DNA of 64,000 bases from Panaeolus papilionaceus. Lineage: Eukaryota; Basidiomycota; Agaricomycetes; Agaricales. The translations under genes and the position numbers were made by a program. The notes beneath the pieces are model-generated. The model was not told where the DNA came from. It ran no database searches and worked only from the letters and a program-made list of their open reading frames with translations. The stretch's first letter is position 1. Each line of letters opens with the position of its first letter. The stretch covers positions 1,426,001 through 1,490,000 of the forward strand of contig JADNRZ010000007.1 of assembly GCA_015501605.1 (NCBI GenBank), read 5' to 3'. Positions 13 to 20,604 of the stretch are shown here, in pieces.

Positions 13-1443
13 TTAAGTAGGACCCACTCCGTTTGGGAAGGCATCGGGGCTCGAGGAGGGATCACTCAAATTGTAGAACATCTCAGCTTCCTTGCTTATC
101 CCATTCCACAGTGCTTCGCTCAATTTAACATTGAGAGATCTGACAAACAGGCATTGGTCGTACATCGTGGTAGATACCCACGGCCACTGGAATATGTTGA
201 AGTAGGAACTGAAGGTCCAGGATGTTTCTTGCCGCACTTCACTGAGGTGCTGCTTGCTGGGGCCCACACGGGTTTCCACCATTCCATCGCACTCCCAAGC
301 ATATGTTACGCAGGGTGGTGCCCATAGAAAATGTATGCGGCAGCTTTCCTCAACGGCGCCAGTAGAACCTTGCTCTGCGACAGCCATGCCCTAGGACGAG
401 GACTTGTCGCAACCGGTAACCAGCCGGATGTCCCCATTGCGCACATGGTAGCCCAAAGTGACCATGACGTATCTGTACCAGCTTTCGATGTTGCTGGATA
501 TATATTTGATCCAAATGGACACTGTCTGAACATCGGAGGACTGCATGCCGTCGGGAAGAGCGAGGATAACCCCTTGGGGTGCGATTATCTCGAAGTTCTG
601 TCCATCTCTACAGGCACGGTACCACAGATACATGGTAGTTCTTAAGCATGTAGACACACTGACAACGCACCTTGTGCTTGCATCGTTAAGTCGCAGTCTG
701 CGCACCCCAGCACTTGTCATGGCTGTGTTCGTGGCGAGCGGATTCGTAAGCATCATGTCATGAGGTCGAAGCGGTTGAACAGGGGTATACCCTTCAGGCA
801 TCACATCAGGGTGAAATGAATGGTCAGAGGGTAGCAGGATGTTAAAGAGGAACACGAAGTGTCCGTCATTCTCGATGAGACCAACATCACCGACATCAAC
901 GCCGAGCTTTCGTTTCGAGACCAGTAGCGTCTGGCTGCATTCTGGAACCCATAGTGGGTAACCACGACATTTTTCGAGCATTTTTCGCTCATAGACTTTG
1001 TTATTTGCTTCAAATTGGGGAGTTAGACTGGCACTAAAGGAAGACAGGAACGGGCTTGAGGTTTTGGTGCTTGTAAGAGGGGGAGTCGACGAATTGCTGG
1101 ATGGGAGGGGGTGTGCTGAAAGTGTGGGTGAACCCTGACACTCCAATGGATTCAGAGGCGGCTGAACAAAAAGTAATTCATATCTCATTTGAAGTATTCA
1201 GATAAGCTGTAACGACATACAGTGCTCCGGTTTAATGCACCTGACGTGGTTTTTATTTCGACATGAGCATCCTTTGAGAGTGCTACCATAACCAATGCAA
1301 AGCGTCAGATTCACTCTTCCTCTTCATCAGGTTAAAAACATGCGAGGAAAGTTAAGGTTATAGACGACGTGTTGACTTGTTGTTTGATTATAAGTTCCAC
1401 CTGTGACTAGTAGGTTGGAAGCACTGAGCACACTGGTGGCCAT
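13..1443 (-). pseudogene. Array paralogue A, decayed copy of the B-type protein
   Basis: This is a broken relative of gene B next door. The first readable exon (near 1341-1443) encodes the N-terminal motif with GGTYNQTT followed by a HVVYNLNFPR stretch. The core follows with KVYERKML, GYPLWVPECS, GDVGLI, FLFNILLP, MPEGYTPV and then ESWYRYV and NGDIRLVTGCDK. Three lesions are visible. The Trp of the conserved S-x-WGMA motif is a TAG stop at 391-393. The donor after the second small exon reads AT where gene B has GT. The matching acceptor AG is also missing. Downstream, CDGMVETRVGPS and DQCLFVRSLNV match gene B, but the frame ends at position 13 in the Ser/Pro-rich linker. Any further 3' remnant lies outside the window. 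Function of the family is unknown. Confidence 0.7.
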
Positions 1444-2929
1444 CTGACTAGTAGTGACGGGACCGTCATGTCATAGATTATTGTTATCGTTCATGTTTTT
1501 ACTGCACGAAAGCATGGTTCAGATTTACCTGGGCTCTGGCGGTTGTAAATTTGGCCCTTGAGGCTCTTGATCATTCTGAGCTACATTTCTTGGGGACAAG
1601 ACACGTCCTCTACCTCAGTGATTGCCAGCTTCGCTATCACGCCAAGTGCTTTGTCCATAGTGTAATCCGTGCGATCAGAGATATCCATCATATGTTGATG
1701 AAAGAGACAAGTTGGGGAGATTGTGGACAATATACATGCGCGTTGAAGCAAGCTTAAGCCAGCTGCAACTTGAACGGAAAACCATGTCTATCTACAATGT
1801 GCCAATTGAATGCACAGCCCGTCAATACACGCCATCGACCCTGAGGTTTGAAGGGCGAAGCCTGCTTGTCTGAGATCAACCCTTGTTTCGTTCTGGTCTG
1901 TGTGATCATGGTGTAACGGTTACGTTTAAGTTCTATTTTATATATTTTGACTTATTATCCTCGTTTATTTATTCATTTGCGCCCATAAACTCCTCAAAAC
2001 CCATCTTATCTTATCTTTCTCTCGCGTACTACCATTGACTCGTTCGTTCATCTTATCTTTTGCTTATTTCTTGGTCATAGTCATCTGTCCGTCCTGTATT
2101 ATCACCAACGTTATCGACATTCCTTCTCATCACCCCAATGATATTACCTATCCTCACTCATCAATGCATCGCCCTCCATCGCCCTCCATCGACATCGCCA
2201 ATTGTCACGATTCGCAGGTAATGCTTAAAGTATAGGTAATATAATTATAATTACAATTATTCAACACATTACTCGACTCTACTGTAGACCCTACGGAAAG
2301 GTCTTCCAAGACAAATACAGATGTTTCAGCAAGAACAGAGGGGTAGAGAAAGCGTGTGTGGGGGTCATAGGTCTAGGGATAGTAAGGAGATGACGAGGCA
2401 CTGCTGAAAGCTGAATTATCAGAATGGTGGCGCGTCGGTATTGGCTCATCTTCACGTTCTTCCATTGCCATATGCAAAGCTGAGGTTGGTGTATCTCTGA
2501 CAATACCAGGCAAGCGATCTTCCCCTATCTTTTGGATGACAAGACGTCTTTTATTATCCATCTTGTCAGTCTCCGCCGCAGGGCGTAAACGCCTAAGCTG
2601 AGTTAAGAAACGTGCAGCGCTGTGGGGAACAACGTCAGAAGAGATGTTGCTTGAACCTCAGATTAGGTGTCTCACCCGGTGCGTTTCGCGGGGCTTTCAG
2701 CTTTGCTACTATAATCGTTATTTTCGGCCCCAATCAGCCCTGCGTCGTTGCTCAAATTATGGCCCTGCACGGCCATCACGCTGGATGCCCGGTCTGCTTC
2801 ACAGTCGTTATTGGACCTTGGAAGGTGGGACATTGCCACTTTGGATGGCGTAACTAAATACGTACATTGAGGAGAATTCATCGGAGGGACCTCGGAGATG
2901 GGGGATAGCTTGCTGGGAAAACGTTCAGC
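1444..2929. other. Intergenic stretch between paralogues A and B
   Basis: About 1.5 kb with only short open frames. It should hold the promoter and any upstream first exon of copy A (minus strand) and the 3' flank of gene B. A possible remnant of A's first exon, followed by a GTAAAT donor, lies near 1530-1560 on the minus strand, but it does not join the next exon in a good frame. I see no RNA gene or repeat. Confidence 0.4.
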
Positions 2930-5848
2930 CTAAATGAAACGGTAAAGTGTCTGATTATTTATCTGTGTCTGATAATAAATTATGAAATAGTCGGATTGAC
3001 GTACACGCACTACATTCGTATCGTCAGTCAGTGTTCGAAGACTTTGATCGATTTTTGTAGACTGTGGGGGCAGTGGGGCCTCTGAAGCCATGAGCTCGAG
3101 CTGACGTTTGCAGAGCACGAGATCGTCAACATTGTCAAGGGCGGTCTCCCGAGAACCTTTTTTGAAAAAGTGATGAAATTTTCCACAGGCAACGCCATAC
3201 CGAAAGTCCGATGAATTACATGGATTCAGAACTTGCGCCAATTTCTCAAGTATTGCTTTCATAGTTGACGAAATGTATGGATCAAACTTCATGTCGTTTC
3301 TCAGGCTGGAGCGATGGTCGAATGAGGGGTTGTTTGGGTCTTCACCTCCTGCGCTTTGAAGAGGACCGGCTGCAGCTGCTTCTAGAACATACATGACCCT
3401 TCTAAGAGTGTATATCAGATCCTGTAGAGATGGGCACCCTGTTTTAATATCGGTATGTGGCTCTTTGTGTTCCGAAACGGACAAAGATTCAACTGCCTTC
3501 GTTGTTTTCGTACCAGAGAGGCCAGAGAGAGATTCAGCAATCTCCGCCACACTTCTGGTCGGCTGGAATTCGCCAAAGTACTTGTTAGTGCTACTGTGCG
3601 CTTCTTGTGGACAGAAACTTGAACCATCACCTCTTTTACTCGGTTCGCATACAGAGCTTTAACGGTACCTATAAGTTAGTCAGTGATGAACGAATAATCA
3701 ATTAGAAATCCTGGCTGAAATAATGTCACGGTGGAGGACTTAAATGGATTTGAGGACTCACCATCTGAAAGACACTCGAAGCTGGATTCGAGCAAGACAG
3801 CACATATCATTTCGTTCTCGTCGATAGGTATGGCATCCTGGAGGGCTACAGTCAGCATCCTGAAAATTGACACCATACCAATTGGGTGGAGCTCGAAAAA
3901 GCAACGCACGGGTATATTTCGCAATGCAAAACACCAATCGTTATCGTCGACAACGGCAGCATATGCCTCAGGGTAAAGCAAGATCAACAACCTGCTTAAC
4001 CAATCAGCAGGGTGGTGGTCCTGTGGGCTTTAGGTTTAGTGTGACGTTCGATGCTTGATTGTCAGGGGTCCTCACTGTGTATAACTTCCGAACCGTGGGA
4101 GTTGGTGTACCACTCACGAACCTGGCTTGCGACATCTTAGAGTTACTTGGGGAGACTTGTGGGCTTGTGCCAAGTTCTTTCTCGTTTGAGGCGTCCTTGG
4201 GAGTCGACGAGGAATTAGTCTGTGATAATCGTGAGGGGCCGATGCTGGCCCCCAACTCGGAACCACTGTTATTGTACAACTCTTCCGCCTCCGTTTTTAT
4301 CTCGTTCCACGATTTGCCGTCTAATCTGACGTTGATTGACTTGATGAAAAGACATTGATCGCGCTGGGGGTGGTTTGCAGTGCGTGGCTGTAGCCAACGT
4401 AAAAGGTAACGCCGCAGTGATTCCCGGCGCACCTCCCTAATATGGTCTTGGCTGGGTCCGACTCGAGTGTCAACGATGCCGTCGCATTCCCACATGTGCT
4501 TTGCAGGAGCTTTTCTACCTGTTGCCCGTCGGAAGCGTAGTCTGTAGCTATTTTCAGCAGTGGGTTGTTGCTCTGCAACCGCCATTCCCCAGCAAGAAGC
4601 TTTGTCGCACCCAGTAACGAGCCGAATGTCTCCGTTGTTTACTTCGTAGCCCAGAGTAACCTTGGCGTAATTGTACCAGCCTTTGAGGTTCCTCGTCATG
4701 TAGTTCACCCAAAGCGACGAAGTTTGAATACTTGAGGACTGAGCTCCCTCAGGAAGAGTAAGGATGACCCCTTCGGATGATAATATCTCGAAGTTCTGTT
4801 CACTGAATATGATACAGGTATCAGAAGTGCCTGAATAGTGTCAAGGTAAAACTCACTTTGACGAGCTGACTGGATTTGACCCGTGTCGACGAACAGACAT
4901 GCTTGTCAACGCCGTGTGATGCCCAAACACGCTGGTTTGCATCAAGTCTTCAGGATCAAGAGGCTGAACTGGGGTATATCCTTCGGGCATGCTTCGACGG
5001 TGAAACGGGTGATTAGCAGGGAGGAGGATGTTAAATAAAAACACAAAGTATCCGTCTTTGTCGATGAGCCCTACATCGCCAACCTCCACTCCAAGTTTCC
5101 GTTTCTTGATGTGAAGCGTCTGACTGCATTCCGGGACCCACAGTGGATAGCCTCGACCTTTCTTGAGCATATTTCGCTCATATATTTTATTGCTGGGTTC
5201 GAATTTAGGCGTTAAGTCGACGTTAGCCTGCGAGAGAGCAAGAGTTGAGGTTTCGGTGCTTGTGAGCGGCGGAGTATTCAAAGTATCAAGATGCTGCATT
5301 GAAATGCCTTGGGATTCAGCTTGGGAACGCTGAATTAAAAATAGTTCAGACGTCATTGTATCTCCTGCCATTGAGACAGATCAAACCATACGCACTTGAT
5401 CCGAGGTGGTTCTTACTTCGACCTGAGCATCTCTCGGAAGCTCTAGCGATGCTTAAAGTTAAATCACCTTGTTCCTTTCATCAAATAAAAAAACATACGG
5501 GGGAAGTTTAGCTGGTAGATGACATGGTGCTTCGTCGTTTGATTGTAAGTTCCACCGTTGACCATTAGATTGGAAGCACTGAGGACGCTCGTGTTGATCG
5601 ACCTGCTTTTGAATATAACAAGTACCGTTATGAGTCGGACATCGTCATTTTTTTAATGCGAGTATGTACTTGGGTTCTTGTATTTTTGCAGGTGACTCTG
5701 GATCTTCAACGCAGTCAACCCGAAAGGCCATGTCTGTTTGCTGGGGCTGAACAGATGGCATGTGCCCGACATCTGTAGGTGCTGAGTTGCACGTTCCATC
5801 AACAAGATGCAAGTCAGGAGTGCGAATTGTGGAATCAGCCGTGTCCAT
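2930..5848 (-). CDS. Array paralogue B: modular protein with WGMA core and helical C-terminus
   Basis: I do not recognise a named family. Nine exons fit one open frame of 813 residues: 5670-5848, 5495-5602, 5417-5442, 4857-5364, 4076-4802, 3910-4020, 3762-3837, 3595-3668 and 2930-3562. In order the protein has a Gln/Pro-rich leader (1-60), an N-terminal motif NGGTYNQTTKHHVIY (about 70-95), and core part 1 with IYERNML, GYPLWVPECS, GDVGLI and FLFNILLP (about 150-270). Core part 2 has NGDIRLVTGCDKASCWGMA and the motif CDGIVDTRVGPS (about 275-420). A Ser-rich linker follows, then HPADW...DDNDW (517-553), an acidic DAIPIDENEM piece, and a Leu-rich probably helical region (about 610-800). All splice phases close. 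The last intron (3563-3594) is only 32 nt and the 3' end could hide one more intron. It is the least altered copy that lacks an added enzymatic or PAH module. Confidence 0.7.
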
Positions 5849-6287
5849 AATGTGGTTATAGTGAGCGAAGGAGGGATGCAGCGAAGACGGACCACGACGA
5901 ACAGTGAGGATAAATGTTCATTAATTTTCCAATGCAGTGAAAACACGTGGTTTCACAGCCTTGATCCTAAGGGAGGACATCACGCCGACACTTCAACACA
6001 AGGCTATACCTAATTCAATGGAATATCTGTTTTGCTTAGCATGGTCCCTGATGGGCTTTCTATCAAGGGTTTTTACTTAACTCAAAAAATGCCTCGGCAG
6101 TCGACTTGGCCAACGTCCACACCTGATATCCAAATTCCAATGAGCCCAACCAGCGAAAAACGACTAGTGTTGTGTTTTGTAAAGAGAATTCGAAGCAAAG
6201 GACTCGGATATGTAACATGTTGGGAATCTGAGAGCTGTGAACAATCATTTACATCGGACGTGTTTGGTATTTTGGTATTAAATAAAG
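5849..6287. other. Intergenic stretch between paralogues B and C
   Basis: Upstream region of gene B and 3' flank of gene C. No convincing coding sequence, repeat or RNA gene is visible. Confidence 0.4.
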
Positions 6288-9200
6288 CTAATAAATATCC
6301 TCGGCCTTGATAAACTGTATCCCTTCCATGGCATCGTCCGCAGACTGATGCTTGACCTTGATAGATTCCACCTCTTCCATAGAATCATCGACGGATGAAT
6401 CTTCATGCTTACGTGCTTTTTCGTCTCCATACTCATCATTAGATATCCAGTTCCTAGGATCGACATAGAGTTGTGACTCCAGCATTTTGTAACGCAATGT
6501 CAGGTCCTGAATTTTTTGTCGAAGGAACACGACCTCGGATAACGCATGCGAGCTGACGATGGAGTTAGCACGTCCCTCAGAACACACCTACACGAGCCTT
6601 ACGTTTTGATATCATCAGCGTCATCGAATGCAGGGTCCGAATCCATTTTAACGTCCCCAGTCTCATCCTCGGTAGATTCAATTTTTCTTTTCTTCCATTT
6701 GCTCTGTGAATTGGTAAATGACAGATAGGTTTTGTTTCCATCAATTATTGCAGACGAGCACTAAACATGGGACTTACCGAGGATGGTGTTGAACTGGCTT
6801 GATCAGATACGATCAGGGGAAATTCATCGTCACTGAGTAATCTTTGTGGTGTACCCGACATATTAAAATCGACGATACTTTTGAGACCGTCGACACACTT
6901 CTCAAGACTAGCTGTGGACCCGAAGAGGCGGTAACGAAGATAGAACTCGATAACCGGCCTGAAAGGTAAGGCCAAGCGAGAGGCAAAACCTCGAACAGCC
7001 TCCTCTGCGGATACCCTATCGATGAACGCTGGAGCCTGCGTGCCCTTCTGATGTAAGAGGGATTTTACAGAGGAAATTATAGTGCTATCTTCCCCTGAGG
7101 ATGAGCCAACTTTGCTACGAATTAGCTTCTGGTTGTCATTGATCATCCAGCTATCCAGAACTTCTATGAATCTCTGGACAACTGGGGTGCTATATATTTC
7201 TTCGGACCACGTATCATCTGTTGCTCTGTCGTAACCAGGTATAGTGCGGTGAAAGAACCTTAGTGCGTCAAGTGCTGGTACAAGATACAAGTGCAGCGAT
7301 GCTGAGCTGCTGTTGGTGAGGTGACGACCGCGCTCTTGAGCGTCCCTGTCTAATATTTCGAGTTGATGCGTCGGAGTCACCTTTGCCTAAAAATAATGAT
7401 GAGCTTGCACCGTTCAAAATCTGCCAATTAATTCGGACCGACTTGTTCAGGTTCTGGAGCCTGGTGAGGATCAAGCATCACAACATCTAAGATAGGGCAA
7501 ACACCAACACATTTTGACTATGGCATGTCGTAGCTAGAACTATGGTTCTTACCATTATACAACCTAATCCGTCGACTAAGTAAAATGCTGCCGAGTAGGG
7601 TTTCGTCCGTAGGAAACTCGAAACTTGAGCCCTGGTCCTTGGCGCCGGACGAATAATCAGCGAATTCCCTGAGCAAGCAGTGACAAAACCCTTACGAGTA
7701 ACGACGACCATATCCAATCGTCATCGGTAGTGATGACCGCACGTGAAGTGGGAGACTCTTGGAGAAGAAAATGGTTGAGGACGTCACCCGGGTGTGTATT
7801 CTATCATGCACATAATCAACATAGCAAGATAGTTGATTTCGATACAAACTGTGTTGACTTACTGTATAGCAGAGATCAACGGATGGCGGACCTAAATTTC
7901 TGCCAGTATTAACGTCGAGAATAAAAGAGCTTGTGTCGGGAGTGACAACAAGGAGCTTATTGCAAGGGCGAGGGTGACATATGAGTCGTAGTTGGTATCC
8001 GGGGGTGCCAATCGCTGCATTCGCCCCTTGCAAAAGGTCCTGATGATTCTGGAATACTGGCGAAAGCTGCCGAACAAGATCACTTTTGTCAAAACTGGTT
8101 AAATCTGAAGTCGTCGTTTGTTGGCTGCGTCCCAAGATATTGATAAATTGGTGATAGGTGGATGGGTCCCCCCGAAGTCGAACCTTAACAGCTGCGACAA
8201 ATCCGTCAATACTCAAGTTATCACTTGGGCCTTCAATTGCAAGATCCGGTGCTTGGTGAACCTCTCCTGTGACCGTGTTGAGCACGAACGTGCCTTGGGG
8301 TGTTTCAATTGCAACGTTATTGGAAGCCCGAGGGTAGATATATGGGTATACTTGGTAACCAGAAGGAATAAATTTGTTAAAGGCTTGAAGGAGGTCAGGT
8401 GCAGTCTCGTAAAATAGTATTGCAACTTTTCTAATGACAGTGTCACGGTCACGGATGCTATGATATTGTGTGAGCAATGTTCACCGTTCGAGGTAAATAT
8501 TTGCGCTCGACCACTCACATATCATCATTTTTTCTGGAGTCCTTCATGATGGTTAGAAACCCATCATAAATGCCTGAATCTCGGCCCAATCTGTCCTGGA
8601 TACTATCGAGGAAATTTAGGGCATCAGCTACTGAAAGTTCCGAAGATGAACTTGAAGCTGGGGTGGTCATAGTTGTCGTTGTCGTTGATAATGTAGACGA
8701 AGACGAGGAACCTGATGGTCCAGGGGCGGTACTAGGGAATTCATCAGGCAATAAGATCGCCGCGATCTCTTTGTTCAACTTTTCCCACTGTTCCTCACCC
8801 ATCATACCATTCATTGTGCGGATGAAAAGGCACTGGTTATTTTGTTCTGCCTCACCCCCAATTCCCAGCTTCTGCAGCTCAGAGACGGTAGGACCTGTCC
8901 TAGTATCGACAACACCAGTGCAAGTCCATACATGTCTAACCTTGGCTCGCCTGCCCTTCACAGGACGAAATCGAAGCTCGTGACCTTGTGGATTATGAGC
9001 TTGCCCGCTGACTGCTGCCATTCCCCAGAATGACGCCTTGTCACATCCGAGAACTAATCTGATATCCCGTTGTTGGCCTCACGTCCCAAAACGCCATTGA
9101 CATACTTATACCAGCTTTCAATGTGCTTTGCCATATATCCGCGCCATATGCCACGTGCTTCCAAGTCTAATGTGGTCGCACCATTGGGAAGCGTGAGGAT

Positions 9201-10344
9201 TGCACCTTCCGCTGGGGATGACTGGAAAACATGTTCACCACTCCTAAAAGCAGGTTTGATGTTAAAAACCAAAGCGCTTGGAGGTAGCGATCTACCTACT
9301 CCATGGTATTTTCGGGGTGCACTTCTTCAACAGAAACACTTGTCAAGGATGTGTAAGGTTTAAGTTCATTGAAGACGCGAATATCCCTTGGCTTTGGCGC
9401 AGGGATGGGCTTGAAGCCATCTGGCATTTCAGTTGGCTGGAATGGATGATCAGCTGCCAAGGTAATGTTGAATAAAAACGAGAAACCGCCCGACGATGTT
9501 ATGAGTCCAACATCACCAATGGCGATTCCCTCTTTCTGCTTTTCGACTGGGAGGTTGAGGCTACACTCGGGTATCCACAACGGGTAGCCCCGATGCTTGG
9601 TTAACATGTGTCGCTCATAGATTGCGTTAGCTCTAAGGTCAGCCTGGGATGCCTGGTTTCCCCCCCCCCCCCCCCCCACCCCCCCAATTAGTCGCTTATA
9701 AGGTGTGAAAGGCTATACAAGAACGACATACGACTTTGGGTCTTCGGACTCTGGTGCGCTTCCGGGTTTCTGTAAAAGCTCAGGATTCCATAGCCAAAAA
9801 TATGGGGGACGACCAACTCTTTGGTGCCGGCGGTGCCTGGATCATGTTTTAGATGGGTGTGAGATGGGATGGATACAATCGATACACTTCTCTATGCGTA
9901 CCTCAGCATTCCGATTGCTCCCCGCTGTCTCCTCACTAAAATCTCTCCCATATTCTGGAAAATGCATTGAAATTAGCTCAGACACTCTGGTTTCATTAAA
10001 GGAAAACGCACGATTGAAATTGACGATAAGGTTAGCATGATTATCATTTGTTTGAATGAAACGGCCACCTGTAATGGCATTTATCCGGGATGTGTCAAAC
10101 AATCCTCTCTGGGGTGTGCTAAAAAAGAATGCATTGAAAGCAATAAGTGTCTCCATGTTTGTAGCGCCCTAGATAGTGGAGCATACATATTCGACAAAGC
10201 CAGCAGTTGGCCTTGGGGTTGTATCTCTGCTTCAAGCTGGGGGTGTTGATCACACTCATTCTGTAGCGCGCCAGACGCTGATCCACTGGTCACAGGTCCC
10301 GAGGAATCTTGCGTCGTAGGTGTATGATTGTCTTTTCGACTCAT
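6288..10344 (-). CDS. Array paralogue C: WGMA core with two Sin3-like PAH domains, frameshifted by one base
   Basis: Fourteen exons give an approximately 1078-residue protein once a single missing base near 9066-9068 is allowed for: 10187-10344, 10008-10118, 9902-9935, 9818-9836, 9732-9769, 9300-9652, 8519-9243, 7863-8457, 7696-7800, 7553-7631, 7443-7486, 6778-7386, 6603-6703 and 6288-6552. Visible parts are the N-terminal motif RINAITGGRFIQT plus HANLIVNFNRA, a basic stretch KKTRKRTRVRRPK, and the core (GYPLWIPECS, GDVGLI, ESWYKYVNGVLGRE). Next come two paired-amphipathic-helix repeats: one starts ALNFLDSIQDRL and ends FNKFIPSGYQ, the other has FVAAVKVRLRGDPSTY and ends GTPGYQ. Then follow HPGDVLNHFLL...TTDDDW, a helical region, KWKKRKI and a C-terminal coiled coil (FLRQKIQDLTLRYKML). 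PAH domains in Sin3 bind short repressor helices, so a nuclear, transcription-linked role is an inference. The frameshift may be real decay or a sequence error. Confidence 0.65.
9660..9685. repeat. Near-homopolymer C tract (G tract on the coding strand)
   Basis: Eighteen C, one A, then seven C on the plus strand. It sits in the intron between exons 5 and 6 of gene C, and on the coding strand the G tract ends about seven bases before the 3' splice site, where a pyrimidine tract is normally expected. Such tracts are also prone to length errors in sequencing. Confidence 0.9.
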
Positions 10345-10402
10345 CAGGATGGATGTGCTCTGCCTGTGCAGGAATCGTCAAGAGATGGTGGAACGATAGG
10401 AC

Positions 10403-10544
10403 TGGCAAGTATGTACTGCATTTTTCTTAACTGGGACATTTCTGGTACAGCCAGGTACAGCACAGCCATCATAACGTATGGCAAGTATGTACTGCATTTT
10501 TCTTAACTGGGACATTTCTGGTACAGCCAGGTACAGCACAGCCA
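10403..10544. repeat. 76-bp tandem duplication in the promoter of gene C
   Basis: A 66-bp unit at 10403-10468 recurs without change at 10479-10544, a period of 76 bp with a 10-bp spacer. Each unit contains GGTACAGCCAGGTACAGCACAGCCA-type short repeats. The duplication starts about 60 bp upstream of the gene C start codon, so it lies in the promoter or 5' leader. Confidence 0.9.
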
Positions 10545-10782
10545 ACAGTTCATAAGGACGGTCAGACTATGAATTGGTAGATTAGGACAAGAATGGTGAA
10601 TAAGTACAGAGTCCAGGACCCAGGTTCAAGTTCAAGCCAGTCACCAGTACTGATTGATGTCCTGTAAACCAAACAAAGGCAAAGTCAGGTTGGGACTTCT
10701 GTTTCTTCCAATCTACATAACCTCGACGTCAATTTCGAAATGTACATATGTTATCCATTTTTATGCACTTTTGGTCATGGCA

Positions 10783-13700
10783 TCAACCTGATACCCGTTC
10801 TTTTCCCATTTTCAGCGCTTCTTCGATCACTTTAATGAACATGTGCGTGAGCCTGAAGTACCCACTGTTGGTACTCGACGATAACATGCGAATGTGAGCT
10901 TGAAGCTCATTAGCCGCAACAGTGTTTGCCAATGGGACCAAATTGCGACTATCCTCATTTCCATCATGCGGCACTACAATGAATGTTCTACATGCCAAGG
11001 ACGCTGGCGATGCAGGAGGTAGCTGCGTATATATCCTGCAAAATATTTGGTTCATAAGTTCCGCGAAACCGCAAATACCGGATACTCACAGTCTGAACAA
11101 CACTCCGTGTTCTTTTTCTATCTTGAGCAAAGCATTGAAACGCTCCTTCTGCAGCGCTTGATCGCCTATTTGATCGAAATATCTCATCCGATCAGTGACT
11201 GACGATAATTGTCGAGTTCTGAGGCGATTTTGCTGATATGCAGCTAAGCCACCCGCCGTCAAAAGCGCCAGGCTCCCCAATCCTCCAATCAGACCGGAGG
11301 CAAGGGCCAGACCAGTACTTATACCCAATTCGACAGACCCAGCTATGGTCCCGCTTACCAACACTGAAGAATCAACTATGCCGCTTGCAACAACAGGTCC
11401 TGCTATGACAGCTGTTGCCGCCCCGGCTGGTACACGGCTTGAACTCTTCGAATCAGAAAGTTCCTCTGAATGAATGACATTTGGGTGAACCCCGAGGTAC
11501 TGTTCGATCAATAAATAAGTTTGAAACGAGACATAACCTCGGTTAAAGCGGACGTACTGGAGTATCTAGTGCAACGCAAGCAATGACATGGGGCCATGAA
11601 GGGCTATTGTTTGTTGATGGGATCCGATGCAGTTCGCGGAGGGCATCGGCGGCTAGGATGCCTCCTGTGCTGAAGGACCATACGCGTTAGGTATGGCCCA
11701 GACAAGGTAAAGCAAGATAATAAGCTCACCTGTGTCCGCATAGAACAACCTTGACAGTGCGCGCATCCATACCATTCGAAACCTCGCGCTCAACGATCAA
11801 GGTTACGAGCCAGTCGACAAAGTGCAGGACTGCTGTATCCTGTCAACCAAGAACAAGAACTTCAGAACCATGGATAGATTTGAATTTAACATTTCAGAAG
11901 TCCAGAGGTACTCACCAAGTTATCTTGCATCTAAATACGGATTGCCGAAGCACCATCAACATCCTTGGTCGGTGAGTAACGGTATAAAAAACATACCTGG
12001 TATGCAGGATAGACAGCCATTTCGGTTTTGACATGAGGTAGCACCGCTTGAAGCATGTGCTCCACCCTCTGGGAGAAATCGTCGAAGATCTGAGTATCGC
12101 CCTTAAGCCCAGCAATATAGACGATAAATATATGGTCAGTAGACTCTGGCTCCACTTTACATGTATGATGCATTTGCCTGCCACTTCCAATTCGGTTGTG
12201 AACAACTTCGTCCAGGCTCAGCTTGCTGATAGACGTAGCCAGATCCTCCATTTTCGAGCTATCTGGAGATAACAATCGCTTCAGCAGGGTTTGAGCGAAG
12301 GATATTTTGTCTTCGTCATTCTTGAACTGAGAAAGAAGTGCAGGATTGGCTTGCAGATGTGGCAAGAGTGCGTCGTTCAAGGCTCCTAGGACGCGCTGCA
12401 CAACTCGAGAGTTCTCTGGGGAGAAGTCCTTATAGATTTCGAGGTCTGGAACCGGGCATATCTGTTGCTGGATTCGGTTGTGGTTCTTTACATTGTACTG
12501 GAAGACTGCGAGAGCCCGAAGCAATGGAACAACAGCATCCAGCTCCGCAGATTTATTGGATGTTGAATTAGCCAACCTTGTTGGAAGGGGTAACTTGACA
12601 ATGTCTATTAATGGTCGACTGGTAGTGGTATCATCCTGTAAATGAGGGAGATGGGTGCTTGCTTTCAGCTCTTCAAGGTTCGGCCAGTCTGGCGATGAGA
12701 TCTGCAACGCGGAGCTTAGAGGCTTTTGGCAGCATGGAGGTGTGACCTAGCGCACTTACTCCATGGAAGGATTGCTGCGAGCTATCCGTCAGATAAACAG
12801 AGGGACCATCTAATGTTGATCTCGAAGTCAGGTCCAGGAGTTCCAAGGAGAGCGTGTTGTGAATTCAGGACAAACCTTGTTGGATGATTCGGTTCAATAA
12901 CACAACACTGATTAGCTCGTCGTCATCCAAGACTGCGTCAGGGTTTCCCTATATATACTTTGATAAATACCAGCGGTGTCGTCAGGGATACAAGTTGTCA
13001 CGCACCTCTTCCTCTTCCAGTAGGAATCGCCAATCGTCGTCACAAGTAACCGCGACTTTTGCGCCTGGTTGCTGATAAAGAAGGAATCGATTTATGATAT
13101 CAGCGGGGTGGGCATCCTGACAAATAAACCTCAGTAAATATTTGACGGTGAAAGGCAATCAAGAGTACCGTATACATGCGATGATTGGAGTCCAAGTTGT
13201 TATTTGCATATGACCTGGTACCTGTCCAAGATGCAATGTTCTCGTACCCCGACGAACCTCCTCGCGTTGCAAGACTAGTACTGGGCGCTCCATTTGAAGG
13301 ACTCCCGGATGGAGTGTTGTCTGACGTTGCGCGGACATTTCCCAGTGCCACCTGGACTTGATGGTGTATCTTCGCCCACGCCTCTTCGCTCACCATCGCG
13401 TTGAGTGTGCGGACAAAAACGCATAGATGATCTCTTGGTACAACACCTGACTCTCCAGCTAACTGCTGTAATTCGTCTCTACTTGGCCCTGCTCTAGCGT
13501 CGACGACACCATTGCAATCCCATAAATGTCTAACGAGACTGTTTTGAGTGTTGACCTCTCGAAACCGCAATTGGTATGGCTGGGAGCTGATAACTTGCTT
13601 TCCAGCAGCGACCATACCCCAAGCAGAGGTTTTGTCGCATCCCACGACCAACCTAATGTCTCCGTTCTCGGCTTCTCGCCCAAGTGTTCCATTGACATAG

Positions 13701-14963
13701 ATGTACCAACTCTCGACATTGTCGGCCATATACTTTCGCCAAAAGCCAATTCCTTCTGTTTCGTCGGAGACAGCGCCTTCAGGAAGGGTAAGAATCGCTC
13801 CATCAGTTGACGACGACTCGAAGACCTGCTCCCATATCCTGAAGAAAAACGTTGTCAGTCATAATACGGAGTCCAGGCACAAGTGTGAGTAGCTTACGAT
13901 GCGTTGGATTCAAGGTCTAGCTCTCTGATAGATACACTGGTAAGTGAGCTACGCTGCTTAAACTCTCTGGATGTCAACGTGTTCCCGCGACGAGATACCT
14001 CGATTGGTTGAAAGCCTTCCGGCATTAACGTCGGATGGAATTCATGGTCAATGGGAAGGGTGATGTTGAAAAGGAAAGAAAATGCCCCAGCAGACGTTAT
14101 CAACCCCACATCACCGACGCAGATCCCGACTTTCTGCTTATTTCTAGGCAGAGTCAAGCTGCACTCCGGGATCCAGAGAGGGTATCCTCGTCCTTTGGTC
14201 AAAAGGTGGTTCTCGTAAATCTGGTTTGGCCGTATTACAGGAATGAAACCTGAAGAGAAGGAATGTGGCTGATGACTGACTATCAGCGGCGCGAAGCCAT
14301 ACTACGGGGTGACTTACGAATGTTGGGTTTCTTCGGCTACGTTTTCTAGGTCCTACAGCATGCGGCACATTTAAAAATCGACCATCAGCACTTCGGAGAT
14401 CAGTGGATCTTCAGAAGTAGACTGCTCACTTTTGGTCTTAGATCCTTGAGCCTCGCTTGATGATGATATCGACCTTGACTGGAGCAAACGTGTTAGAGAC
14501 CTGGTCTACGCCATGTAAAGGGTTAACCCCTGACCTGATTCAGATGTTCCGTGACATCAACAGATGATCCAGAGCTATGCTCTGCAGCACACATTTGACT
14601 AGAGTTTGGAAGTTCATCAAAATAAATAACGCACGGTGAAAATGGACCACCACATTTGCATGGTCGCGTGAGGTTTGCGTAAATCGGCCGCCTGTGATGG
14701 TGTTAATTCTAGAGGAATCAAGTATTCCTCGGGCTGATGTCCTATAAATGAGAATATATGTATGAGCAAAGGTGGGACATCTGAGGAGTGAGATCGAGAA
14801 CCAACGTCTGGATAGAAGAGGATCCCACAAGCTGAGCTGAGCTTTCACCCAAGCGCTCGCTTTCTGTCTCGGGCGTATCAGATGTTGAATTGCAGCGCTG
14901 TCTCTTAGGAGGCTTATCCTGGCAGCCTCTCATCGCGCTATTGCTGTCCATGCTTAGTTGCAT
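10783..14963 (-). CDS. Array paralogue D: WGMA core fused to an alpha/beta hydrolase
   Basis: Sixteen exons close in one frame of 1074 residues: 14806-14963, 14631-14741, 14535-14574, 14430-14478, 14318-14352, 13898-14220, 13169-13838, 13006-13116, 12876-12948, 12760-12809, 11997-12701, 11916-11930, 11730-11839, 11558-11669, 11090-11499 and 10783-11035. It has the N-terminal motif RINTITGGRFTQT with HANVVVHFHRA, a basic stretch KRPRKRSRRN (about 121-130), core parts with GYPLWIPECS and NGDIRLVVGCDKTSAWGM, and HPADIINRFLL...TCDDDW (463-499). A helical region (about 570-690) follows. From about 705 it becomes an alpha/beta hydrolase: DHIFIVYIAGLKG, VYPAYQ, VKVVLCGHSTGG with the nucleophile Ser near 817, VIACVALDTPYLGVHP, a Gly/Ala-rich hydrophobic segment, HGVLFR, and a C-terminal AHIRM that may supply the catalytic His. 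This resembles the DUF676/PGAP1-like esterases common in agaricomycetes. The helical and hydrolase parts share exon 11997-12701, so the fusion is not a model artefact. Start chosen because exons 1 and 2 then have the same lengths (158 and 111) as in gene C. Confidence 0.75.
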
Positions 14964-19400: not shown

Positions 19401-19602
19401 CTCAATGTCACCTCTCAATTTCAAACCGTATTTCAGGATAACATAAGGCTTGAAGCTGTTATGTCGAACAAGAGGTCCCCACAATTGGAACCGAAGATGT
19501 CACTTTCAATGTCCCAATAAGGAAGCTACTGCTCCACTGCACAATCATGCATCAGTGATCAAAGGCATGCGCCTTCGTCCTGTGCCACCACTACCGAGTC
19601 CG
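16489..19602. other. Gene-free stretch of 3.1 kb
   Basis: Only open frames under about 110 codons without recognisable motifs. I see no terminal repeats, no tandem arrays and no tRNA-like fold. It includes the 3' flank of MRPL33 and the promoter of the BTB gene. Confidence 0.4.
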
Positions 19603-20604
19603 ATGGACACTAAACTGCAGCTGCATGCGAGTCTGGGTCTAGATTCTAAAATCACCAAACATCCAGAGTTCTACTTTCAAGATGGATCAGTGGTTCTTAT
19701 CGTCGAAAAGGTCGCCTTTCGTGTTCACCAATCCGTGTTGTCGCGTCACTCTGAAGTCTTCAAGGGAATGTGGGACATGCCTCAACCCCCTGAGGCGGAG
19801 TCTTATGATGGGTGTCCTGCAGTCGTACTTTTGGACTCCGTGCGTGATTTTGAAGATGTGATGAAAGTTCTCTATGATTCCTTGTGAGACCGTTTCTATT
19901 TTGATTGTCGTTTTCTCATTGTGAAATGCTAATCTAGAGATCCTAGTTATTTCGACAAACTAAAACCCGACTCGGGCTTATCCAACCTGATTACATTCAT
20001 CTCTGGGATACTGAGGATAAGCACCAAATACAACATGGCTCAGCTTCGGAACAAATGTATCAACATCATTCAAGAGAAGTTCCCGTCTACCTTGGCTGGA
20101 TGCGATGCTGTTCTCAGCAAACACACCCAATATATTCCTTCTGAAATTGTTCGCATCATCCCTCTTGCTCGTGAAACAAATGTGCCGAAAGTTCTTCCAT
20201 GGGCATTCTATCTTTGTTGTCACATCGAAGTCGAGGAGTTGATGGTGAACACTGCCCTTTCGTGGAGCGACAAGGCGCTTTGTCTAGCTGGGAAGGAACA
20301 CCTATGGAAGGTCCAGAAGACCATATCACATTCATTCCTGTTTGAGTTCAAACAGGTCCCAGGATGTCCGAGTGGTTGTGCAAGAGTCGTCCCCCAGATC
20401 AGCTGGCAAGACTGTGAAACACTCCGCAAAAGCCCCCATCCTCTAGAAGAATATCCTGATTGGAACAGTACAAGGGTATGTCCAAAGTGTCGGGACCACA
20501 TCAAGGCTCAACATCGGGATGGAAGAGAGAAAGTATGGCAAATGCTTCCTGGCTTCTTTGGATTGGGAAGCTGGGACGATATCTGCAAGGATCAGAACTG
20601 CTGA
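19603..20604 (+). CDS. BTB/POZ domain protein
   Basis: Two exons (19603-19883 and 19947-20604) give about 312 residues. The N-terminal half has the classic agaricomycete BTB opening: HPEFYFQDGSVVLIVEK, FRVHQSVLSRHSEVFKGM and a later VVLLDSVRDFEDVMKVLYD. After the intron YFDKLKPD and ISTKYNMAQLRNKCI complete the fold. The C-terminal half has Cys residues in WAFYLCCHIE, CPSGCARV and CPKCRDHI, possibly a small metal site. Such proteins are a large lineage-expanded family in mushrooms and may act as Cullin-3 adaptors or simple dimerisation proteins; partner unknown. An in-frame ATG at 19567 and others further upstream to 19450 are possible starts; I prefer 19603 because the typical family start lies shortly before the LDSKITKHPEF segment. 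Confidence 0.85.

What the first reader, a model, noticed from the sequence alone, without database searches (positions are those of the whole stretch)
13..14963. Tandem array of four modular paralogues with swapped C-terminal modules
Seen: four same-strand copies with a common order (N-terminal TGG/NGG motif, two-part core with GYPLWxPEC and NGDIRLVxGCDK..WGM, HPAD..DDDW module), then different endings: helical region only (B), two PAH repeats plus nuclear-like signals (C), or an alpha/beta hydrolase (D). Equivalent exons keep identical lengths (158 and 111 nt in C and D; 111 nt for the HPAD exon in B and D). Inference: a constant recognition or assembly part is coupled to exchangeable effectors, with rapid birth and death of copies, which is the evolutionary style of allorecognition or immune-like gene families. 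No NACHT or NB-ARC domain is present, so it would not be a classic fungal NLR.
Basis: partly seen in the sequence, partly recalled or inferred. Interest (0 to 1): 0.82.

Follow-up and report, generated by a model that had tools for sequence, protein, structure and literature searches.

The report
Mushroom gasdermin-like genes with swappable tails
A dung-inhabiting mushroom carries a gene array whose shared core is predicted to fold like gasdermins, the proteins that punch holes in cells during immune cell death, while the attached parts differ from copy to copy and from species to species.

Summary
The array is real. The host is Panaeolus papilionaceus. The four copies belong to a family of 22 places in the genome, eight of them within 47 kb. 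Copy A is a broken remnant, C has a frameshift, B and D look intact. PAH repeats in C are confirmed but lie inside the protein, between core and HPAD module, not at its end. The D hydrolase is plausible but below Pfam's cut-off.

Among 116 homologues the core, usually with the HPAD module, is joined to unrelated partners: NACHT, caspase, kinase, BTB, TPR, ankyrin, ion channel, dsRNA-binding and many transcription-factor domains; sister cores often differ in partner.

Best explanation: a gasdermin-like cell-death executor with interchangeable sensors, regulators or baits. Pore formation and the immune role are inferred, not shown.

The parts
13..1440 (-). Copy A: broken remnant. Motif exon about 1339-1440, core exon 1 about 671-1161, core exon 2 from about 607 down, in-frame TAG at 391-393, frame closes at 13-15; no HPAD-type motif found 3' of it.
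2373..5848 (-). Copy B (NCBI protein P0003, 480 aa, ends earlier than my model). Motif exon about 5497-5595, core exon 1 4857-5329, core exon 2 about 4076-4802, HPAD exon 3910-4020 (111 nt), helical-looking part about 2933-3658.
   Evidence: AlphaFold model of P0003
6288..10118 (-). Copy C (NCBI protein P0088). Motif exon 10012-10118, core exon 1 9300-9632, core exon 2 about 8519-9243 with a frameshift within about 9054-9078, HPGD exon 7696-7800 (105 nt), helical-looking part 6778-7386.
7863..8620 (-). Two PAH repeats of copy C. Repeat 1 starts in the 3' part of core exon 2 and crosses an intron (about 8458-8518) into exon 7863-8457; repeat 2 is about 8025-8159. They lie between core and HPAD-type module.
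   Evidence: PF02671; exon order
10783..14963 (-). Copy D. First exon about 14829-14963, motif exon about 14635-14733, core exon 1 13898-14268, core exon 2 13169-13838, HPAD exon 13006-13116 (111 nt), small exons 12876-12948 and 12760-12809.
11090..12701 (-). Copy D: exon 11997-12701 holds the helical-looking part and the start of the hydrolase-like part; later exons hold GHSTGG (split over an intron) and a hydrophobic stretch.
   Evidence: model; DUF676 18.2 bits against a cut-off of 20.3

Best explanation
The family encodes gasdermin-like cell-death executors of Agaricomycetes. Layout: an N-terminal GGxF motif that may help assembly; a ~280-residue core with a gasdermin-type pore-forming fold; a Ser/Thr-rich linker; a ~65-residue HPAD (HP) module; and an exchangeable partner, usually C-terminal. 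By analogy with gasdermins (N-terminal pore domain, linker, inhibitory C-terminus) the HP module plus tail would hold the core inactive. A signal received by the tail (NACHT, repeats, caspase, kinase, or a bait copied from a host regulator), or a cut in the linker, would free the core to oligomerise in a membrane and kill the hypha during non-self or parasite recognition. Shown: the copies, one core, partner diversity and turnover in deposited gene models, purifying selection on the core in close pairs. Predicted: the fold. Inferred: pore formation, inhibition by the tail, immune role.
Confidence: 0.55

Rival explanations
1. Nuclear regulators: the core keeps a gasdermin/MACPF-like scaffold that no longer forms pores and serves as a sensor or assembly domain for transcription factors and chromatin proteins; the partner DNA-binding domain or PAH sets the target.
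For: 19 of 43 partnered tips have a nuclear-type partner (by my grouping, including PAH and DUF3295) and two more carry a homeobox or C2H2 beside NACHT. Families: TEA, homeobox, Zn2C6, HSF, C2H2, forkhead, ARID, AreA, WOPR. Copy C carries PAH repeats.
Against: It leaves NACHT, caspase, kinase, ankyrin, TPR and channel partners unexplained, as well as the gasdermin fold and the fast change of partner.
Confidence: 0.2
2. Many of the fusions are gene-model merges of neighbouring genes, so the partner diversity is largely an annotation artefact.
For: P0062 joins LYR, eIF4E and Sua5 matches to the core. P0108 and P0109, both from Moniliophthora roreri, differ by a terminal kinase. My own model of the C30 copy ran on into a C2H2-like stretch resembling a separate gene nearby, which NCBI's model P0029 leaves out. 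No DNA of other species was available here.
Against: In copy C the first PAH repeat starts in the core's exon and the HPAD-type exon follows, in my model and in NCBI's. P0078 has core, HP and ARID in one 1,241-aa frame on a 4,675-base contig; for an intron-rich family this suggests an RNA-derived contig (inference). Partner classes such as NACHT, caspase, kinase, BTB, dsRNA-binding, TEA, homeobox, Zn2C6 and DUF6699 each recur in at least two genera or distant cores.
Confidence: 0.12
3. A secreted or stored defence toxin against grazers, built on a MACPF/gasdermin-type fold, rather than an executor of the fungus's own cell death.
For: Below gasdermins, the structural matches are MACPF/CDC pore-formers, among them the mushroom pore complex OlyA/PlyB.
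Against: Gasdermins rank above the toxins with both models, and partners such as NACHT, kinases and DNA-binding domains are intracellular. Signal peptides were not searched for.
Confidence: 0.07

Closest known systems
Fungal gasdermins (RCD-1 of Neurospora crassa, HET-Q1 of Podospora anserina)
   Different: No sequence match found; HET-Q1 is 278 residues long (PMC10989679 passages) against 480-1816 here for most; no S8, CHAT or C14 match within 10 kb of any of 22 places; exchangeable partners inside the protein; N-terminal GGxF motif.
Bacterial gasdermins
   Same: Best structural matches (8sl0, 9a84).
   Different: No sequence match found; long multi-domain tails here.
MACPF/CDC pore-forming superfamily
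   Same: Next-best structural matches after gasdermins.
   Different: Lower Z than gasdermins with both models.
Fungal NLRs, including those with putative integrated decoys
   Same: Exchangeable modules; NACHT in four homologues. Sordariales NLRs carry extra domains such as zinc fingers and kinases, read as possible integrated decoys (PMC12258605 passages).
   Different: In the window copies no nucleotide-binding domain was found; the constant part is a putative executor.
Agaricomycete amyloid-like NLR motifs (NLR05/08/22/29/44)
   Same: Short N-terminal motif ahead of the main domain in Agaricomycetes (PMC9815663 section 28).
   Different: The paper's logos were not seen. Only 2 of 8 own NLR upstream stretches show a weak GG motif.

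Membership tests
Gasdermin family | Gasdermin-type N-terminal fold | tested here: met
Gasdermin family | Sequence profile match (Pfam PF04598) | tested here: not met
   0 places in the genome at E 10; no PDB sequence match at E 10. So it is called gasdermin-like, not filed as a gasdermin.
Gasdermin family | Pore formation in membranes | not testable with these tools
   Needs expression and leakage assays.
Gasdermin family | Inhibitory C-terminal part released by proteolysis | not testable with these tools
   Core-linker-HP-tail order fits; inhibition not shown.
Fungal gasdermins | Gene next to a protease gene (about 80% of cases, PMC10197012) | tested here: not met
   0 of 22 places within 10 kb of an S8, CHAT or C14 match; other protease families not searched.
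MACPF/CDC superfamily | MACPF/CDC-type fold | tested here: inconclusive
NLR | NACHT or NB-ARC domain in the window copies | tested here: not met
   No such Pfam match in the parts of A-D scanned; four homologues elsewhere have NACHT.
Amyloid signalling motif proteins | N-terminal motif shared with NLRs of the same genome | tested here: inconclusive
   Own NLR upstream stretches: weak GG motifs in 2 of 8; the N-terminal query found only family copies, 5 of 5.
Allorecognition (het) genes | Allelic polymorphism and balancing selection in populations | not testable with these tools
   One genome only. Core dN/dS below 0.3 in close paralogue pairs says nothing about alleles.

The most novel reading that the evidence does not exclude
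Agaricomycetes carry a large, unnamed family of gasdermin-fold executors that fuse sensing and killing in one protein, with host transcription factors, kinases, channels or other regulators spliced on as exchangeable baits; four homologues go further and put gasdermin-like core and NACHT receptor into a single polypeptide.
Probability: 0.3. Interest if true: 0.95.

Novelty: new variant of a known kind. Interest (0 to 1): 0.84.

Why it matters
Cell-death executors of basidiomycete non-self recognition are largely unknown, and the characterised fungal gasdermins are from ascomycetes. A gasdermin-like family in mushrooms, joined directly to NACHT, caspase, kinase and transcription-factor domains, would give named candidate genes for somatic incompatibility and for defence against mycoviruses and mycoparasites. 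It would also show a layout in which the constant part is the killer and the variable part the sensor. It gives a testable function to proteins now listed as hypothetical, and a laboratory mushroom, Coprinopsis cinerea, has a member (P0079).

Tried and rejected
Rejected: (1) Core as a known Pfam family: no match to the core. (2) PAH as the C-terminal ending of C: its exons lie before the HPAD-type exon. (3) C2H2 tail on the C30 copy: NCBI's model (P0029) ends before it, and a similar C2H2-like gene stands alone nearby. (4) Protease clustering: none found. (5) CHAT in P0011: a source's name says CHAT, but Pfam finds only TPR. (6) Defence and prokaryote libraries: the stronger PADLOC and NCBIfam hits (first 25 of 30 and of 31 families shown) look by name like partner domains (kinase, caspase, ankyrin); nothing gasdermin-like is named among those shown. 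(7) 'CDC/MACPF only' as the nearest fold: gasdermins rank higher with both models.

Led nowhere: a 46-residue N-terminal query found only five C67 family copies and no NLR. NLR upstream stretches gave only weak GG motifs. First gene-model settings merged genes and were tightened. In the copy B model the HP module runs helix, strand, helix, helix, strand, strand, which recalls a winged helix; it was not searched alone. An MLKL_N match in P0071 is below cut-off. The first literature searches gave background only.

Not found in print: searches list no paper on gasdermin-fold multi-domain proteins of Agaricomycetes. I judged by titles and starts of abstracts; the library lacks most subscription papers, and the Clave 2022 paper on fungal gasdermins is not held.

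Rows dropped: the core tree used 104 rows, that is 103 of the 116 proteins plus copy D. Thirteen proteins were left out: P0015, P0098 and P0108 as near-duplicates; P0014, P0030, P0032-P0035, P0037-P0039 and P0112 as partial. P0062 was left out of the partner count as a suspect merge. P0022 and P0051 are slightly under Pfam's cut-off and P0116 rests on a precomputed label; all three were counted. P0004, P0046, P0049, P0067 and P0111, whose partner comes only from a source's name or a sub-cut-off match, were counted as having none. One search tabled 37 partner positions; P0011, P0044, P0050, P0051, P0108 and P0116 were not tabled.

Full report
What is there. The window is contig C67, 1,426,001-1,490,000, of a 50.85-Mb genome. 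Proteins on a contig of the same length are named Panaeolus papilionaceus, so the host is that dung mushroom. On the minus strand between 13 and about 14,963 lie four related genes, A to D from low to high coordinate. Each has an N-terminal motif exon, core exon 1 with GYPLWxPEC and core exon 2 with NGDIRLVxGCDK (in C across the frameshift). B, C and D then have an HPAD-type exon (111 nt in B and D, 105 nt in C) and a helical-looking stretch. Copy A has an in-frame TAG in place of the W of CDKxxxWGM, and a pattern search found no HPAD-type motif 3' of it. Copy C has a frameshift at about 9,054-9,078; whether that is a real defect or an assembly error cannot be told. B and D look intact. In C two PAH repeats lie between core and HPAD; the first starts in the exon that ends the core, and NCBI's own model of C (P0088) has the same order: core 1-254, PAH from 318, HP 535-602. 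In D a hydrolase-like part with GHSTGG follows the helical stretch, starting in the same 705-nt exon of my model; the best Pfam match, DUF676, is below cut-off.

Size of the family in this genome. Core exon 1 of D finds 22 places: nine on C67 (eight of them at 1,393-1,440 kb, on both strands), four on C2, two on C12, three on C45, and one each on C30, C16, C15 and C34; exon 2 finds the same clusters except C34. In the ten closest paralogue pairs of my gene models the core shows purifying selection, dN/dS about 0.09 to 0.29, while the tail is far more diverged even at synonymous sites, for example core dS 0.158 against tail dS 0.917 in one C2 pair. At the DNA level C67:1,289 kb and C67:1,396 kb are 88% identical from about 430 bp before the GFPLW motif to about 460 bp past the start of the HP motif, with no match beyond; against C30 similarity ends about 350-380 bp past it. 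Tails thus diverge or are exchanged faster than cores. The tail ends of my models are uncertain.

Relatives. Three searches gave 116 proteins; all named ones are from mushroom-forming fungi (Agaricomycetes, by recall). The first two searches scored only about 8,000 candidates each, so the list is not complete. A core profile of 282 positions hits 116 of 116, as expected since they were found through the core. The HP module is found in 96 of 116. Pfam places partners: NACHT (P0057, P0061, P0090, P0100), caspase (P0069, P0085), kinase (P0071, P0097, P0108, P0110), BTB (P0053, P0058; P0051 just under cut-off), TPR (P0011, P0050), ankyrin (P0104), ion channel (P0018, P0066), dsRNA-binding (P0031, P0070), DUF6699 (P0077, P0103, P0105), DUF6593 (P0008), DUF3295 (P0044), and nuclear-type domains: TEA (P0016, P0093), homeobox (P0019, P0061, P0102), Zn2C6 (P0021 with its transcription-factor domain, P0084, P0101; P0022 just under cut-off), HSF (P0026, P0048), C2H2 (P0040, P0079, P0090, P0109), forkhead (P0089), ARID (P0078), AreA-type (P0077), WOPR (P0006) and PAH (P0088). 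About 60% of the 116 have no Pfam partner. Of 37 proteins whose partner was located, it lies after the HP module in 31; four have no HP match and the partner after the core; NACHT precedes the core in P0057, and PAH lies between core and HP in P0088.

Partner turnover. On a quick tree of 104 cores, 43 partnered tips with 25 partner states need 34 changes; 2,000 label shuffles gave a mean of 36.7 and a minimum of 33, with 2.7% at or below 34. So close relatives share partners only slightly more than chance. Sister or near-sister cores with different partners include P0050 (TPR) and P0057 (NACHT), P0070 (dsRNA-binding) and P0071 (kinase), P0018 (channel) and P0021 (Zn2C6) on contigs of equal length, P0089 (forkhead) and P0102 (homeobox), P0058 (BTB) and P0069 (caspase).

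How it may work. Known gasdermins have an N-terminal pore domain held by a C-terminal part and freed by proteolysis; in fungi HET-Q1 is cut by HET-Q2, while RCD-1 acts through two allelic partners (PMC10197012, passages and section 15; PMC10989679, passages; PMC12881547, passages). The proteins here have the same order, with a Ser/Thr-rich linker and an HP module between core and tail. The simplest reading is that the tail is a regulator, sensor or bait and the core the executor. A GGxF motif upstream of the core (47 of 87 proteins; shuffles mean 1.5, maximum 5; a few of the 47 are by chance) may help assembly; its likeness to agaricomycete NLR motifs (PMC9815663, section 28) was not established. 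Protease genes, which neighbour about 80% of known fungal gasdermin genes, were not found within 10 kb of any of the 22 places for three protease families, so activation would have to differ, for instance through the built-in tail. One NACHT place lies about 2-4 kb from the C30 copy, the only such neighbour in those lists, which are lower bounds.

Are the fusions real? Some probably are not (P0062; perhaps the kinase of P0108). But copy C shares an exon between core and PAH, P0078 carries core, HP and ARID in one frame on a 4.7-kb contig (inferred to be RNA-derived), and several partner classes recur in different genera. Random merging would not be expected to favour DNA-binding domains so strongly (inference; no background rate was measured). 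No DNA of other species could be read here.

Verdict. The main change is the likely nature of the constant part: a gasdermin-like executor with interchangeable sensors or regulators, not a recogniser with interchangeable effectors.

Noticed in passing
window 19567-20604 (+): A gene that looks BTB-like by eye stands beside the array; BTB is also a partner domain in three homologues (P0051, P0053, P0058). Not scanned with Pfam.
   Followed up: no
window 10403-10547: A 69-nt direct repeat, 99% identical and 76 nt apart, lies upstream of copy C: a recent local duplication.
   Followed up: no
window 9661-9685: A near-pure C run at the start of core exon 1 of copy C; a sign that homopolymer errors may be present near the C frameshift.
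   Followed up: no
L010/L011, copy at C67:1396548: My gene model has a tail with about six repeats of a YNVNF-type stretch resembling the one after the N-terminal GGxF motif. Tail model unverified.
   Followed up: no
L021-L024, C45:1,955-1,983 kb: Three core genes alternate with three separate gene models that hold an HP-type module: gene fission, or models split in two.
   Followed up: no
L025, C30:184,720-190,359: A NACHT gene lies about 2-4 kb from a core copy, and a C2H2-like gene stands on the other side: a possible fusion in the making.
   Followed up: partly
L012 and L013, C67:1,413.4-1,414.0 and 1,421.8-1,425.0 kb: A Copia-like fragment and a transposase-like gene (labels by eye) lie between family copies; transposons may help the shuffling.
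   Followed up: no
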